Shown: positions 3,995-9,314 of the stretch, piece after piece
How positions within the stretch are numbered: position 1 is the first letter of the stretch
Layout: each line of letters opens with the position of its first letter
DNA from: a bacterium
GTDB lineage: Bacteria; Blakebacterota; Blakebacteria; Blakebacterales; Blakebacteraceae
Length of the DNA: 9,314 nucleotides
NCBI GenBank assembly: GCA_025774205.1
Contig: JALGWK010000082.1
Location: 1-9,314 of the forward strand
Direction: 5' to 3'
Notes under the pieces: generated by a model
What the model was told of the DNA's origin: nothing
Seen by the model: only the letters and a program-made list of their open reading frames with translations
Database searches by the model: none
Translations under genes and position numbers: made by a program

Positions 3995-5278
3995 ATGGGC
4001 ATGGACAGACCAGTCGTCATCCTCGATGGCGGCCGCAGAACCCCCAGGGTGGATATCCTCGTCAGGAACAGCGCCCCCGGTCTCTTCTCGAGATTCTCGA
4101 CAACCCAGCTCGGCGGCATGGCGGTTACCGCGGCGCTGGAGCATACCGACGTCGATCCCGGCCTGATCGGGCATGTCGTAATGGGGATGGCCCAGCAGAC
4201 GCACCGTGATTCCATCTACGGCGCCCAGGGGATGCGCTGGCGAGGCGGGCTCGGTGATGATGTCCCGGCCCTGACCGTGGCCCGCATCTGCGGGAGCGGG
4301 GCAGAAGCGATCGCGGTCGGATCGGAGATGATGATGGCCGGTGTGCGTCACGACCGGGAACGGCCCTTCTCCGTGGTCGGCGGCGGCGAGAGCATGCAGA
4401 ACGCCTTCCACCTCTACAACTGGCGCGGCCGGAAGGTGGGCTCGGCGGTCCAGAAGTACGGACCGATCGACGTCCACCAGCTCCCGCCCGGGACCTATCT
4501 TCAAGATTCCCTGCTGACCTACCTCTACGACCCGGGGGCGCAGATGGGGATGGCCAATACCGCCGAGGAACTCGGTCGGCGCTACAGCATCACCCGGCAG
4601 GAGGCCGACGAGTTCGGGTTCCGCTCCCAGGTCAATGCCCGGCAGGCGCGCGACGAAGGATGGTTCTCCGAAGAGGTCGAGGTGGTCACCGTCGAGGGGA
4701 ACGGGGCGGAGGAATCGGTCACGGTCGAGCACGACACCCACATCATGGACAATGTCTCGATGGCGAAGATGGCCCGCCTGAGGGCGGCCTTCGAACCGGG
4801 CGGCATCATCACCGCCGGCAACGCCAGCGCCGTGGTCGACGGGGCGGCGGCGATGGTCATCGGTCTCGAAGCAGATGCTGCCGAGCACGGTCTGAAACCC
4901 CTGGCCCGGCTGATCGGCATGGGAGTGGCCGCCTGCGATCCGCAGATCATGGGGTGGGGGCCGGTGCCCGCCACCCGGATCGCGCTGGAGTCAGCCGGTA
5001 TCTCCGGGAGCGAACTCGACCACATCGAACTGAACGAAGCCTTCGCGCCCCAGGCCCTGGCCTGCATCCGCGACTTCGAGGAGATGGGGATCGATCCTGA
5101 GAAGGTCAATCCGATGGGCGGGGCAATCGGCCTCGGCCACCCGCTCGGGGCTACCGGCGCCATCCTCACCCTGACCTGCGCCTACGCGCTCCGTCGCAAA
5201 GGAGAGCGCTACGGCCTGGTAACGATGTGTATCGGAGGCGGGCAGGGGATCTCGCTGATCCTGGAGACGGTGACCTGA
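3995..5278 (+). CDS. Thiolase (acetyl-CoA C-acyltransferase)
   Basis: A 427-residue thiolase that should cleave 3-oxoacyl-CoA with CoA to give acetyl-CoA and a shortened acyl-CoA, completing the reactions of the preceding gene. All catalytic groups are visible: nucleophile Cys99 in RICGSGAEA, the NEAFAPQAL segment, His382 in GLGHPLGATG and Cys412 in MCIGGGQGIS. The protein is some 30 residues longer than the usual 390-400. Part of the excess seems to lie in the loop region after GGGESMQNAF (LYNWRGRKVGSAVQKYG), which in thiolases helps shape the substrate pocket. GGAG stands seven bases before the ATG. The 12-bp gap to the dehydrogenase/hydratase gene indicates one transcript. In a BamA-type pathway the expected substrate would be 3-oxopimeloyl-CoA, but that is inference; a general 3-ketoacyl-CoA thiolase is equally compatible. 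Confidence 0.93.
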   Translation: MGMDRPVVILDGGRRTPRVDILVRNSAPGLFSRFSTTQLGGMAVTAALEHTDVDPGLIGHVVMGMAQQTHRDSIYGAQGMRWRGGLGDDVPALTVARICGSGAEAIAVGSEMMMAGVRHDRERPFSVVGGGESMQNAFHLYNWRGRKVGSAVQKYGPIDVHQLPPGTYLQDSLLTYLYDPGAQMGMANTAEELGRRYSITRQEADEFGFRSQVNARQARDEGWFSEEVEVVTVEGNGAEESVTVEHDTHIMDNVSMAKMARLRAAFEPGGIITAGNASAVVDGAAAMVIGLEADAAEHGLKPLARLIGMGVAACDPQIMGWGPVPATRIALESAGISGSELDHIELNEAFAPQALACIRDFEEMGIDPEKVNPMGGAIGLGHPLGATGAILTLTCAYALRRKGERYGLVTMCIGGGQGISLILETVT

Positions 5279-5382
5279 TTACCGGCGCCGGATTCTCTCC
5301 AGCGGCGATCCTCCTGGCGAGCCTTCTGCCGGCCAGGAAGGTAACAAGGATCGATCCGGTGGAGACCCTCAGAAAGGAATAG
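5279..5382 (+). pseudogene. C-terminal remnant of an FtsX/MacB-type ABC transporter permease
   Basis: Directly after the thiolase stop a different plus frame reads about 34 codons that resemble the end of FtsX-like permeases: a hydrophobic stretch SPAAILLASLL, then PARKVTRIDPVETLRKE and TAG (5380-5382). The family typically ends its last membrane helix with PARxAxxxDPxEALRxE followed by the stop, and the match includes the stop position. There is no ATG, GTG or TTG start and no upstream permease sequence, because the thiolase occupies that space. I read this as the leftover end of a gene lost when the thiolase end was joined here. An assembly joint would look the same. Confidence 0.7.
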
Positions 5383-5433
5383 GCAGGGTCACTCCGGAGT
5401 CTGGGAGGCGGGTCGGCGGTCCGGGAATGTCCG

Positions 5434-6837
5434 TCAATGTCGGGGCGGCGGTTCCCACAGCGAGAGGGCTCGCTCCGGGTCACTCGCCCAGGCGGGGACG
5501 AAGATGCCGCGGCTGCCGGCTGCCACGCCGACCTCGAGGTCGAGCCAGGCATAAATGCTGTCCATGACCGCCTGCTGTTCCGCAAGATGCGCGATCCTCA
5601 CCCGGTGATCACCGCCCTCATGCATGATCCAGAGGGCGTTGGTCAGACCGAGCGGTTCCACAGCCCTTGCCGACCACGGATCGATGCTGCCGTAAATGTA
5701 GACGATCTCACTCCCCTCACTGAGCAGCCAGTCGTGGACATCCTGCACCGTGGAGGGATTGTAGGTGATCCCCGGATCATTCCCGGTGTTGTACTGGTAC
5801 TGGACCAGGTCACTCAGGTGGGCGACCGGGGTGGCCGGATAACCGAGTTCGGCCTGGGCCTGGTAGTAGTAGGGCTCGAAGAAGGTGTACCCTTCGTCGG
5901 AGGAGCGATCGAGACGGGCGACGAAGGCGAAATGCTCGAAGGCGAGGGAGTCGCTCATCGTCGGGGCGGGGATCGTGGACCAGTCCACCCGGTGGTACTG
6001 CCAGAAGTTCCACTGGTAGCTGACCACCCGGCTCTCGAACGTCCGGTCGGCGTACCCGGAGAAGCTCAGTTCGTTCCGATGAAACCAGGGACCGAGCATG
6101 TCCACGAAGGTCTCGCGGTTATCGAGCAGACGCCGCTGGAAGGTCCGGATGGCGGTCCGGCTCTCGGGCGTGCCGACCTCATCGAAGAACGACACGAATT
6201 CCCAGTCGGGAGCCCCGAAGACCAGGGGTGCGACATAGACCACGGTGGCCTCGACATCATCGGGATAGAAGCGGCGGTGGAAGAGGGCGGTCTCGCCACT
6301 CTTGCTGCCGCCGGTGGTGACCCAGGAACCGTCATAGATCCTCTTGAAAAGACTGATGATCCGGTGATGATCGGCAGCCGACTGCCGGATGGTGAGCTTT
6401 GAGTAGTCAGCCGGATAGGGGCGGGCGTACTCGAAGAAGCGGTGGACGGCACTGAGGTGGTTGGTCTGCAGCAGCTCCGCGAGTTCAGCCACGTAATCTT
6501 CGGGGATTCCATAGCCGTTGGTGGAGAAGACCACCGGCAGGGAGTCATCCACGTGGTGGAGGTAGAGGCGCTGGTTGAAGGCCTGACCACCCAGGTTCTC
6601 ATGATCCACCGGCTGACGGAAATCGATCTGGAAGGCTGCCGTATAACCGTGTTCCGGTATGAGTTCGGTGACCGAGACCACGCCGGGCAGGGCCCGCAGC
6701 CGGCCCAGAATGTCGGTCGGGGCCGGTTCGGTCGGGTTCTTTGTACACGATGAAAGAAAGAGGAGGGCCGCGAGGAGCGACGCTCTGCGAATCCCGGTCC
6801 ACAGCGGGAATCGGGCGGCGGGCTTCAGATGGGGCAT
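5434..6837 (-). CDS. Secreted lipoprotein, S37-family serine peptidase (PS-10-like prolyl aminopeptidase family)
   Basis: A 467-residue protein with a lipoprotein signal: basic N-terminus, hydrophobic ASLLAALLFLSSC, lipobox LSSC with lipidated Cys31, then a Thr/Pro linker. The mature part is an alpha/beta hydrolase. The nucleophile motif TGGSKSG (Ser178) is followed by ETALFHRRFYPDDVEA and VVYVAP, a hallmark of peptidase family S37 (Streptomyces PS-10 tripeptidyl aminopeptidases). The likely triad partners are Asp386 in YGSIDPWSARA and His411 in EGGDHRVRIAHL. It should hydrolyse peptides at the cell surface or in the periplasm, and length and motif order are normal. GGAG lies upstream of the ATG. 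It converges on the thiolase gene, with a 155-bp gap holding the permease remnant and a palindrome ACTCCGGAGT (5391-5400) but no T-tract terminator. Family confident; substrate preference not deducible. Confidence 0.88.
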   Translation of the reverse strand: MPHLKPAARFPLWTGIRRASLLAALLFLSSCTKNPTEPAPTDILGRLRALPGVVSVTELIPEHGYTAAFQIDFRQPVDHENLGGQAFNQRLYLHHVDDSLPVVFSTNGYGIPEDYVAELAELLQTNHLSAVHRFFEYARPYPADYSKLTIRQSAADHHRIISLFKRIYDGSWVTTGGSKSGETALFHRRFYPDDVEATVVYVAPLVFGAPDWEFVSFFDEVGTPESRTAIRTFQRRLLDNRETFVDMLGPWFHRNELSFSGYADRTFESRVVSYQWNFWQYHRVDWSTIPAPTMSDSLAFEHFAFVARLDRSSDEGYTFFEPYYYQAQAELGYPATPVAHLSDLVQYQYNTGNDPGITYNPSTVQDVHDWLLSEGSEIVYIYGSIDPWSARAVEPLGLTNALWIMHEGGDHRVRIAHLAEQQAVMDSIYAWLDLEVGVAAGSRGIFVPAWASDPERALSLWEPPPRH

Positions 6838-7236: not shown

Positions 7237-8064
7237 ATGCCTGAGCTTCCGGAAGTGGAGACGGTCGTCCGCGGTCTTCGACCCATCCTCATGGGGAGGG
7301 CGATTGTCAGGGTGGATTCCACCGCTGCTCCGGCGACCTCGATCGTCGTCAGCCCCTCCCTGCCTGGTGGAACCCTGGAAGAAGTCCTGCCGGGGCGGAC
7401 CGTGCTGGGGATCAACCGGCGGGGCAAGAATATCCTTATCTCCCTCTCAGGTGATCTCACTCTCTGGGTGCACCTGAAGATGACCGGCCAGTTCCGGTTC
7501 ACAACCCGGGATGAGCCGCGCGACCGGCACGATCTGGTCTCCTTCGATCTGGCGCGGCCGGGGAGGGTGGGGGAGCGGTTCGGCCGGCTGCGTCTCTACC
7601 CCGATACCGAACTGTGGGACCAGCCGGGACTGGCCGACCTGGGCCCGGAGCCGCTCGAGTTGCCGGCTGAAGATTTCATCGAACTCTGTCACGGTCGGCA
7701 TCGTATGATCAAACCGGCCCTGCTCGATCAGACCTTCATCGCCGGGATCGGGAACATCTACGCCGATGAGGCCCTTTTCCTGAGCCGGATCCACCCGGCG
7801 CGACGGACCGATTCGATCGCCCAGCGGAAACTGATCGAACTCCATGGTCAGCTGCAGGATCTGCTGATCAGGTCGATCGAAAACGCGGGCACGACGATCA
7901 TCAACTTCGTCGATGTGGAAGGGGAGGGCGGTTCTTTCCAGCGCCTGCTGCAGGTCTATGGAAGGGAAGGGGAGCCGTGTGTAAGATGCGGCCACCCGAT
8001 CAGGCGGATCGTGATCGGATCGAGGTCATCGCATCTCTGTTCACACTGCCAGCGGAGGCGATAA
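7237..8064 (+). CDS. mutM: Formamidopyrimidine-DNA glycosylase / AP lyase (Fpg, MutM)
   Basis: A 275-residue base-excision repair enzyme that removes 8-oxoguanine and formamidopyrimidines and nicks the abasic site. The start MPELPEVETVVRGL gives the mature N-terminal Pro nucleophile and Glu3 (numbered with Met as 1: P2, E3). Lys64 in RRGKNI and Met82 in HLKMTGQF are in place. The helix-two-turn-helix reads ALLDQTFIAGIGNIYADEAL (161-180). The C-terminal zinc finger has C248, C251, C268 and C271, with the DNA-contacting Arg263 in GSRSS. The loop normally reading DPRRFG is GERFG (112-116), so one of the usual arginines is Glu and the strand before it looks about three residues shorter. Length is normal. 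The ATG follows a poor Shine-Dalgarno (GGGGGCGCGGG about 18 bases upstream), suggesting weak initiation. It stands alone, next to noncoding DNA on both sides. Confidence 0.96.
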   Translation: MPELPEVETVVRGLRPILMGRAIVRVDSTAAPATSIVVSPSLPGGTLEEVLPGRTVLGINRRGKNILISLSGDLTLWVHLKMTGQFRFTTRDEPRDRHDLVSFDLARPGRVGERFGRLRLYPDTELWDQPGLADLGPEPLELPAEDFIELCHGRHRMIKPALLDQTFIAGIGNIYADEALFLSRIHPARRTDSIAQRKLIELHGQLQDLLIRSIENAGTTIINFVDVEGEGGSFQRLLQVYGREGEPCVRCGHPIRRIVIGSRSSHLCSHCQRRR

Positions 8065-8244
8065 GACCGATCCTGCGACGCATGGGCTGTCGATCTGTGA
8101 GCGCCGGCGGTATCTGAAATGCTGCGGCACGACCGGCCTCTCCTGGCCGAAGGATCGTCTTCCAGCAGTCTTTGATCGAAGAGAAATCGTTGAGGATGCC
8201 ATTCGAATGGAGATGGCAAGATGGGTGCGGAATTGAGTTTTTGA
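8065..8244. other. Intergenic region after mutM, left of the palindrome array
   Basis: No coding sequence is recognised. Two small structures are present: CGGCC-tctcct-GGCCG (8134-8149), a hairpin without a T-tract so not a standard terminator, and the perfect 12-bp palindrome CCATTCGAATGG (8199-8210), whose centre is 50 bp left of the first array palindrome. The final 20 bases are AT-rich. Confidence 0.4.
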
Positions 8245-8375
8245 TGTACTACATTCCGCGTACAGGATTTGCCCGATGGGATGTACGCCATGAATCGTAC
8301 ATCCACGTCCGGCGGGGATGTACGCGTTAGCGCGTACACGTTATCCACAGAAGTATGTACGCTGTTTGTCGTACA
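8245..8375. repeat. Array of four 20-bp palindromes TGTAC-N10-GTACA with exact 37-bp period
   Basis: Copies are at 8245-8264, 8282-8301, 8319-8338 and 8356-8375; every start-to-start distance is 37 bp. Every copy is preceded by A (ATGTAC). Copies 2 to 4 extend to TGTACG...CGTACA; copy 2 has 9-bp arms (GGATGTACG / CGTACATCC) and copy 3 has 8-bp arms (TGTACGCG-TTAG-CGCGTACA). The 10-bp centres and the 17-bp spacers between copies are not conserved, so only the dyad arms and the spacing are held. That is the signature of a multi-site protein-binding array or of a row of RNA hairpins, not of a CRISPR. It lies in the gap after mutM, ending 13 bases before the open frame of the hydrolase gene. No fifth copy is found at the next position on either side. 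Confidence 0.85.
8341..8349 (+). other. Perfect DnaA-box sequence TTATCCACA
   Basis: The consensus DnaA-binding 9-mer TTATCCACA lies in the 17-bp spacer between palindromes 3 and 4. It is the only exact copy I noticed in the window. A 9-mer can occur by chance in a window this size, so its interest comes from its position inside the array. Confidence 0.4.
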
Positions 8376-8481
8376 GGGAAATCGATGATCGCACACCTCT
8401 CCCACGCCTCCCTGGGGCAGCGACACGGCTCGCTCACGGAGTGCTGGTGGAGGTCAACCTGATCGACTGGAATCGATCCGC

Positions 8482-9314
8482 TTGAAACTCGACATACCGG
8501 GATTTTCGGCCGCCATGGCCTCCCACGGGAAGATCGTATGGGCCCGTGGATTCGGCTGGGCGGACCGGGAGGACAGGATCGAGGCGGATCCCGAGACCAT
8601 CTACCACCTGGCTTCACTGACCAAACCCTTCGGTTCGATAATCCTCATGCAGCTGGTTGAATCGGGTCAGGTTGATCTGGATGATCCGGTCTCTGAATAT
8701 GGAGTTGAGCTCGATAGCCCGGGAGTGATCCGGGTACGGCATCTGCTGACCCACACCTCACTCGATATCCCAGGATCTTCCTATCAGTATCGGGGTGATC
8801 GTTTCGGGGAATTGGACCGGGTCATCGAGGAAACCACCGGAAGGACCTTCGCCGATCTCGTGGCTGAGAAGATCCTCAGGCCGCTCGGCATGGTTCAGAC
8901 AGCTCCCAATCCCCGGCAACGAGGTGCTTTCGCGTTCTCCGGACTCGACCAGAGCCGATTTCTGGCTGATGTCGCGCAGGGCTACGGACCTGACGGGGAG
9001 GAGAGGACGGAGTATTCCGGTTGGTTCGGAACCGCGGCAGGACTGCTTTCTTCAGCCACCGATATGGCCCGTTTCGCGCTGGCCCTCGATGAGGGACGAT
9101 TCCTTGAGCCGGAAACCTGGGAGAATGTCTACACACCGGCCCGCTCGAATGCCGGTGAAACGCTTCCGTACGGGTACGGCTGGTTCATCCACGAAGAGGC
9201 GGGGGTGAAGATCGTCTGGCACTATGGCTGGTGGACGGGCTGCTCCTCGCTGATTATCCGGATCCCCGACCGGGAACTCTCCTTCATCATCCTGGCCAAC
9301 ACCGATGCCCTCTC
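8482..9314 (+). CDS. Serine beta-lactamase-like hydrolase (class C / penicillin-binding type, PF00144), 3' end outside the window
   Basis: The frame has no stop to the window end. It shows IPGFSAAMASHGKIVWARGF, the nucleophile motif SLTK (SxxK, Ser codon 8614-8616), LLTHTS, a YQYRGDRF segment where YxN is expected, VIEETTGRTF, LSSATDMARFALAL and HYGWWTG (9220-9240) in place of the KTG or HxG motif. Proteins of this fold are esterases, D-amino peptidases or beta-lactamases; the true substrate cannot be told. The 5' end is unclear. The frame opens after TGA 8386-8388 without ATG or GTG before 8515, and homology-like sequence (DRLESIRLKL) precedes that ATG. I placed the start at TTG 8482; CTG 8467 has GGAGGT 12 bases upstream. 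No signal peptide is visible, so the N-terminus may be damaged or the protein cytosolic. Confidence 0.85.
   Translation, partial: MKLDIPGFSAAMASHGKIVWARGFGWADREDRIEADPETIYHLASLTKPFGSIILMQLVESGQVDLDDPVSEYGVELDSPGVIRVRHLLTHTSLDIPGSSYQYRGDRFGELDRVIEETTGRTFADLVAEKILRPLGMVQTAPNPRQRGAFAFSGLDQSRFLADVAQGYGPDGEERTEYSGWFGTAAGLLSSATDMARFALALDEGRFLEPETWENVYTPARSNAGETLPYGYGWFIHEEAGVKIVWHYGWWTGCSSLIIRIPDRELSFIILANTDAL

What the first reader, a model, noticed from the sequence alone, without database searches (positions are those of the whole stretch)
8245..8375. Four palindromes TGTAC-N10-GTACA at an exact 37-bp period
The sequence shows four 20-bp dyads whose arms are invariant over 5 bp, while centres and spacers diverge; starts are 8245, 8282, 8319 and 8356. 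Conserving arms and phase but not the filler implies selection by something that reads the arms at fixed spacing. 37 bp is about 3.5 helical turns, so neighbouring sites would face opposite sides of the helix, as in a wrapped or bridged nucleoprotein complex. Possible roles by inference: operator array for the downstream hydrolase, a partition or replication site, or tandem RNA hairpins. I know no named element with this rule.
Basis: partly seen in the sequence, partly recalled or inferred. Interest (0 to 1): 0.8.

Follow-up and report, generated by a model that had tools for sequence, protein, structure and literature searches.

The report
Operator array for antitoxin-like repressor
Four evenly spaced mirror-image DNA sites lie between two genes and recur at two other places in the same genome; they are most likely landing pads for an uncharacterised DNA-binding protein encoded beside one of the copies, whose distant relatives carry the same type of site in their own promoters.

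Summary
The genome holds 11 such dyads, all in three intergenic clusters. C222 has four at exactly 37 bp; C261 has three at 62 and 133 bp. The window and C222 arrays belong to one gapless 229-bp repeat (82% identity) whose arms diverge far less than the rest (1/48 against 40/181, P=5e-4). The 37-bp phase is thus shared ancestry, not a demonstrated rule; C261 breaks it.

Beside the C222 array lies a 216-aa gene with a CxxC/CxxC zinc ribbon and, by eye, a ribbon-helix-helix C-terminus. At that locus the sister species keeps only the gene's tail and one decayed dyad; it has no intact dyads. The protein's relatives on Rhizobium and Acetobacter plasmids are second genes of toxin-antitoxin-like pairs. 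Pair promoters carry TACG-N8-CGTA, the same half-site core and spacing, between -35 and -10 (no matches to the shared motif in 1.22 Mb background).

Best reading: dispersed operator arrays of an orphan antitoxin-like repressor, copied from its own control region. Binding is inferred, not shown. RNA hairpins, a transposon end or a replication site are less likely.

The parts
8163..8391 (.). Dispersed repeat unit shared with C222:4843-5071 (reverse strand), gapless, 82% identity
   Evidence: blastn and direct comparison
8163..8244 (.). 82-bp flank of the array; at C222 the matching stretch lies between array and the zinc-ribbon gene (probable part of its control region); 45% G+C against 63% for the window
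8245..8264 (.). Dyad 1, TGTACTACATTCCGCGTACA (position 6 is T, the only departure from TGTACG)
8282..8301 (.). Dyad 2, TGTACGCCATGAATCGTACA
8319..8338 (.). Dyad 3, TGTACGCGTTAGCGCGTACA
8356..8375 (.). Dyad 4, TGTACGCTGTTTGTCGTACA
8376..8391 (.). Short conserved right flank GGGAAAtCGATGATCG (1 change in 16 against C222)
7237..8064 (+). Upstream neighbour: formamidopyrimidine-DNA glycosylase (mutM/fpg)
   Evidence: Pfam Fapy_DNA_glyco, H2TH, zf-FPG_IleRS
8482..9312 (+). Downstream neighbour: beta-lactamase-family serine hydrolase, runs off the window end; start codon uncertain
   Evidence: Pfam Beta-lactamase 4e-53

Best explanation
The array is a cluster of four operator sites for a sequence-specific DNA-binding protein that reads the half-site TGTACG[A/C] twice in mirror image, with 8 bp between the 6-bp arms. 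The likely protein is the 216-aa zinc-ribbon protein with a ribbon-helix-helix-like C-terminus encoded at C222:5185-5835, about 195 bp from the C222 array. At C222 the array would be its own control region. The window array, together with the 82 bp that separate array and gene at C222, is a copy of that control region without the gene; C261 is a third, rearranged copy. The protein is a distant relative of the second gene of a two-gene, toxin-antitoxin-like operon on Rhizobium and Acetobacter plasmids, whose promoter carries one dyad with the same half-site core and spacing between -35 and -10, the place for an autorepressor. No partner gene was found here, so the protein looks like an orphan antitoxin-type regulator, and the extra clusters either act on neighbouring genes or titrate the protein. 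Shown: the sites, their confinement to three clusters, slower divergence of the arms, the gene beside one array, loss of most of both array and gene in the sister species, and the shared half-site in promoters of homologs. Inferred: that this protein binds the dyads, its fold, and any regulatory effect at the window locus.
For: 11 dyads in exactly 3 clusters and no excess of weaker sites: 37 other places with up to 2 mismatches against 34 for the control pattern. Arms 1/48 changed against 40/181 elsewhere, P=5e-4; arms intact in the rearranged C261 copy. Gene beside the C222 array, single copy in the host and not detected in three relatives, which also have no dyads. In sister species G001 the same gap keeps the gene's 3' end and a decayed dyad. 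Full-length homologs on plasmids. In six homolog operons the 150 bp before the first gene hold exactly one TACG-Nk-CGTA for k=0-20, always k=8, between -35-like and -10-like hexamers, with centres differing between Rhizobium and Acetobacter. Shared motif T.TACG[AC]-N6-[GT]CGTA.A: 0 matches in 1.22 Mb background.
Against: No binding data. The ribbon-helix-helix assignment is by eye; Pfam, NCBIfam and PDB searches give nothing significant. Homologs share only 21-23% identity and the plasmid dyads have T or A, not G, at position 2. The plasmid operons have one dyad on the promoter, not an array upstream. One cluster (C261) lies between convergent genes, where a classic operator has no obvious target. 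Relatives' genomes are incomplete (63-82%), so absences are weak.
Confidence: 0.6

Rival explanations
1. The dyads are operators of a different dimeric regulator, for example a TetR-family repressor, and the adjacency of the zinc-ribbon gene at C222 is incidental; the window array might then control the downstream hydrolase.
For: Tandem TGTAC-N10-GTACA dyads of other sequence and spacing (22-29 bp) occur in many unrelated bacteria and phages. A TetR-family gene lies in the window at 1162-2073 on the minus strand. From general knowledge, 20-bp dyads are typical of TetR-type operators.
Against: The window TetR gene is about 6 kb away beside fatty-acid oxidation genes and has no dyad near it. It does not explain the shared TACG[AC]-spaced dyad in promoters of the zinc-ribbon homologs or the joint decay of array and gene in G001.
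Confidence: 0.17
2. Non-autonomous mobile element: the array, with its outermost half-sites TGTACGAC...GTCGTACA, is the end structure of a miniature element copied by a transposase.
For: Three dispersed intergenic copies; the C261 copy is absent from the G001 gap; outermost half-sites all have A at position 7 against 2 of 16 inner ones; TG...CA termini.
Against: The 229-bp homology extends 82 bp and 16 bp beyond the array ends; no target-site duplication recognised; the 18-bp duplications at C261 repeat each flank separately rather than one target on both sides; at C222 the sister relic points to age and deletion, not recent insertion; only 3 copies; arms are conserved while the rest decays.
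Confidence: 0.1
3. Replication-control or chromosome-organising site (DnaA-titrating or centromere-like cluster).
For: A perfect TTATCCACA DnaA-box sequence lies in spacer 3 (8341-8349), and the C222 copy has TTTTCCACA, still within TTWTNCACA. Three clusters per genome, one of them between convergent genes.
Against: Only one box per array and not kept in the C261 copy; no replication or partition genes nearby; the homolog-promoter dyads are explained better by an operator.
Confidence: 0.07
4. Tandem RNA hairpins: the array is transcribed and each dyad forms a 6-bp stem with an 8-nt loop.
For: Both strands fold well (z -4.4 to -6.9); at C261 one dyad is followed by a T run and scores as terminator-like.
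Against: No compensatory change among 11 dyads: the arms are invariant, the one arm change (T at position 6 of dyad 1) breaks a pair, and most position 7/14 combinations do not pair. With arms held fixed the window array's folding is unremarkable (z -1.4 and -1.6; C222 -2.2 and -3.1). No Rfam match. No terminator found in the window or C222 arrays.
Confidence: 0.06

Closest known systems
Promoter dyad of the unnamed zinc-ribbon gene pair on Rhizobium and Acetobacter plasmids (e.g. NZ_CP006988.1, NZ_HF677572.1)
   Same: Homologous second-gene protein; promoter dyad TACG-N8-CGTA with the same half-site core, A/C at position 7 and spacing; arms kept while centres change.
   Different: One dyad only, directly between -35 and -10; a partner gene is present; protein identity 21-23%; position 2 of the half-site is T or A instead of G.
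MqsR/MqsA toxin-antitoxin system (PMC2791442)
   Same: Toxin-type gene first, antitoxin-type second in the plasmid relatives; second protein has an N-terminal four-cysteine zinc domain and a presumed C-terminal DNA-binding domain; MqsA binds palindromes in its own promoter and also other promoters.
   Different: MqsA has an HTH-XRE C-terminus; here it resembles ribbon-helix-helix. No family model links either protein to MqsR or MqsA. No toxin gene found in the host.
Ribbon-helix-helix operators with repeated subsites, e.g. RelB/relO (PMC2812701)
   Same: Short (6-bp) subsites in mirror image, several per operator, read by dimers; autoregulation of an antitoxin-type gene.
   Different: relO has adjoining 12-bp half-sites that tolerate no spacing, whereas here arms are 8 bp apart and dyads 37 bp apart; fold not confirmed.
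Other tandem TGTAC-N10-GTACA arrays in bacteria and phages
   Same: Same outer 5-bp arms and dyad length.
   Different: Different inner sequence, mostly 22-28 bp or multiples of short repeats; the only other 37-bp pair found (an Algoriphagus contig) is unrelated in sequence; none encodes a relative of the zinc-ribbon protein in the DNA held.

Membership tests
Operators of the plasmid zinc-ribbon gene-pair family | Dyad T.TACG[AC]-N6-[GT]CGTA.A | tested here: met
   Found in 10 of 11 host dyads and in 5 of 6 homolog promoters listed (the sixth, L213, keeps TACG-N8-CGTA); 0 in 1.22 Mb background
Operators of the plasmid zinc-ribbon gene-pair family | Site lies in the control region of a gene for a family member | tested here: met
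   Met for C222 (array about 195 bp before the gene start); the window and C261 copies are remote from the gene
Operators of the plasmid zinc-ribbon gene-pair family | Bound by the family protein | not testable with these tools
   Needs EMSA or footprinting
MqsR/MqsA toxin-antitoxin system | MqsR-family toxin gene beside the antitoxin gene | tested here: not met
   No partner gene beside C222:5185-5835 and none detected in the genome with the plasmid profile (the empty search has no positive control); no MqsR model matches the plasmid first gene
MqsR/MqsA toxin-antitoxin system | N-terminal four-cysteine zinc domain in the second protein | tested here: met
   CxxC...CxxC invariant in six aligned members; metal binding itself untested
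MqsR/MqsA toxin-antitoxin system | C-terminal HTH-XRE domain | tested here: not met
   No HTH model matches
Ribbon-helix-helix DNA-binding proteins | Ribbon-helix-helix fold | tested here: inconclusive
Miniature transposable element | Terminal inverted repeats flanked by target-site duplications | tested here: not met
   Homology runs past the array ends in two copies; no duplication of one target on both sides
Structured RNA | Compensatory changes in stems | tested here: not met
   Arms invariant; the only arm change breaks a pair

The most novel reading that the evidence does not exclude
An antitoxin-type zinc-ribbon repressor has no recognisable toxin and has become a stand-alone regulator or DNA-organising protein, with multi-site arrays copied to distant intergenic places, including a gap between convergent genes; the arrays may be bridged with one another through the protein.
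Probability: 0.25. Interest if true: 0.6.

Novelty: new variant of a known kind. Interest (0 to 1): 0.42.

Why it matters
It links an unexplained DNA array to a candidate binding protein through comparative genomics and predicts a shared half-site (TACG[A/C]) for an unnamed protein family seen in a sparsely sampled phylum and on rhizobial and acetic-acid-bacterium plasmids. If binding is confirmed, it is a clear case of an operator region copied around a genome without its gene, and of an antitoxin-type protein living without a recognisable toxin. It is not a new class of genetic element.

Tried and rejected
Rfam: no match. C69 near-matches at 1012 and 1092: one mismatch each, no homology to the clusters around them, treated as chance. 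None of those stretches encodes a relative of the zinc-ribbon protein. Array against phages: none. The protein in viral contigs, phages: none; in 386 genomes one weak match limited to the zinc-ribbon part. mutM and the hydrolase were not found in the relatives, so the window gap itself could not be compared. Coding reading of the 229-bp repeat: 41 substitutions fall 19/12/10 by position modulo 3, no clear coding pattern. Motif strings in the literature: none. A second ribbon-helix-helix in the middle of the protein: suspected by eye, not supported by profile comparison. First alignment scoring of the G001 relic was not significant (168 of 2000 shuffles); a gentler scheme on a shorter stretch was (0 of 5000), so the relic dyad rests on that plus the position; the gene-tail match is solid (E 5e-11).

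Full report
WHAT IS THERE. The four dyads are exactly as described; shuffles give 0.01 matches where 4 are found. The host assembly (3.09 Mb, 86% complete, 527 contigs, in a phylum with only four genomes held) contains eleven TGTAC-N10-GTACA dyads in all, in three clusters: the window (C280), C222:4859-4989 with four at exactly 37 bp, and C261:684-898 with three at 62 and 133 bp. With two mismatches allowed on the 6-bp arms there are 48 places in all, 37 of them outside the clusters, against 34 for the reversed control pattern. So there is no background population of weaker sites.

THE REPEAT IS LARGER THAN THE ARRAY. Window 8163-8391 aligns with C222:5071-4843 over 229 bp without a gap, 41 differences. 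Six-bp arms differ at 1 of 48 positions, 8-bp centres at 9 of 32, 17-bp spacers at 8 of 51, the left flank at 22 of 82 and the right flank at 1 of 16. Arms against the rest: P=5e-4; arms against centres plus spacers: P=0.003. The C261 copy is rearranged and mostly diverged: its first dyad resembles the first of C222 and its last the last, including short flanks, yet all three of its dyads have perfect arms. So the arms appear to be held by selection, while the 37-bp period is shared by descent in two copies and broken in the third. A reader of fixed phase is therefore not established.

HALF-SITE. The 22 half-sites read TGTAC in 22/22, G at position 6 in 21/22, A or C at position 7 in 22/22, then nearly free sequence. 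All six outermost half-sites have A at position 7 against 2 of 16 inner ones (P=4e-4); the copies are related, so this is a description more than an independent test. The arrays also show weak overall mirror symmetry beyond the arms (19 of 41 against about 10 expected).

WHERE THE CLUSTERS LIE. Window: between mutM (ends 8064) and a beta-lactamase-family hydrolase (from 8482), both on the plus strand. C222: between apbE of an rnf-type operon and, pointing the other way, a 216-aa gene at 5185-5835 followed by uvrB (apbE, rnf and uvrB named from their sequences, not from a family search). C261: between the converging ends of an FtsX-type ABC permease and a 2-oxoacid:ferredoxin oxidoreductase gene.

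THE SISTER SPECIES. G001 (same genus) has no dyad. Its C261 equivalent keeps both genes (79% and 81% DNA identity) with a gap of about 90 bp instead of about 390 bp, and no dyad. Its C222 equivalent keeps rnf, apbE and uvrB, but the stretch between the apbE start and the shared sequence before uvrB is about 140 bp instead of nearly 1.2 kb. There it holds the last 50 or so bp of the 216-aa gene (69-bp match running past the stop codon, E 5e-11) and what looks like one decayed dyad with its flanks, GTTTTC.CTGTAC...TGGAAAACGT. The dyad relic is significant in one of two scoring schemes. The simplest reading is a deletion in G001 that took most of the array and gene. G001 is 82% complete, so absence elsewhere is not proof.

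THE CANDIDATE PROTEIN. It has CxxC...CxxC near the N-terminus and a C-terminal stretch RLTVRLSPEQYGDFSWTLHRYRIENWSMVIRGLILVGAQ that by eye resembles a ribbon-helix-helix. No Pfam, NCBIfam, PHROGs, PADLOC or PDB sequence match is significant. tblastn finds relatives over most of its length on Rhizobium plasmids (best E 6e-7), and from those on Acetobacter plasmids (40% identity to Rhizobium). The four cysteines are invariant among six members. In Rhizobium and Acetobacter it is the second of two genes; the first encodes about 97 aa with no family match. The layout, a zinc domain first, a DNA-binding end last, and a partner gene upstream, recalls MqsR/MqsA, whose antitoxin binds palindromes in its own promoter and also other promoters (PMC2791442). 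Sequence tests do not make it a member.

THE LINK. In six plasmid operons (four Rhizobium, two Acetobacter) the 150 bp before the first gene contain exactly one TACG-Nk-CGTA for k from 0 to 20, always k=8. In five of them it sits between a TTGATT-like and a TATATT- or TATATA-like hexamer, the place for an autorepressor. A further Rhizobium copy with a rearranged promoter also keeps TACG-N8-CGTA with a changed centre. Rhizobium and Acetobacter differ in the centre while keeping the arms, the same behaviour as in the host arrays. The motif common to host and plasmids, T.TACG[AC]-N6-[GT]CGTA.A, occurs nowhere in 1.22 Mb of unrelated stretches. This support is independent of the DNA search, since those promoters were reached through the protein. 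The shared core was chosen after looking, so the background count overstates its strength somewhat.

MECHANISM. Most likely (0.6): the C222 protein binds each dyad as a symmetric complex; at C222 this controls its own gene; at C280 and C261, copies of the control region give extra binding platforms. What these do is open. In the window, the flank that faces the zinc-ribbon gene at C222 faces mutM, not the hydrolase, so control of the hydrolase is possible but without direct support. No sigma-70-like promoter was found there, which says little for this phylum.

ALTERNATIVES. Another dimeric regulator (0.17), mobile element (0.10), replication or organising site (0.07), RNA (0.06); reasons are given with each. 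Folding is strong on both strands, but most of that comes from the palindromic arms themselves.

NOVELTY. Operator arrays and autoregulated antitoxin-type repressors are known kinds. New here are the array family itself, the half-site for an unnamed protein family, and the dispersal of the operator region without its gene. No paper in the library holds the motif strings tried.

Noticed in passing
window 8341-8349; L012:4882-4900 region: A perfect DnaA-box sequence TTATCCACA lies in the third spacer; the C222 copy has TTTTCCACA at the same place. Not kept at C261.
   Followed up: partly
L013:593-637 and L013:957-1003: At C261 each flank of the cluster carries its own 18-bp direct duplication of the adjoining gene's end (GCGAGTGATCCGGCCTGG and GGCTTACTGCGATTCCCG), each including the stop codon region. 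Unexplained.
   Followed up: partly
L012:4685-4836: Beside the C222 array, towards apbE, lie a 9-bp tandem array (ACACTCTCT, 9 copies) and a 22-bp one (2.5 copies).
   Followed up: no
L215:3752-4042, L221:2693-2989: Small genes of about 97 aa without any family match precede the zinc-ribbon gene on Rhizobium and Acetobacter plasmids (55% identity between them); a candidate unnamed toxin of a toxin-antitoxin-like pair.
   Followed up: partly
L145, L157, L164, L169, L182, L185 and others: Several viral contigs carry tandem TGTAC-N10-GTACA dyads of the type TGTACTCTAATTAGAGTACA at 24 bp, probably phage operators of another regulator.
   Followed up: no
L050, L051, L053, L071, L074, L097, L098: A Tannerella MAG (JAISOP01) has many contigs with TGTAC...GTACA dyads at 23 or 46 bp whose centres vary, a high-copy tandem palindrome family unrelated to this one.
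   Followed up: no
window 8440-8500: The hydrolase reading frame begins at a TTG at 8482 just after a stop in another frame (..NLIDWNRSA* then KLDIPGF..), suggesting a frameshift or an unusual start.
   Followed up: no
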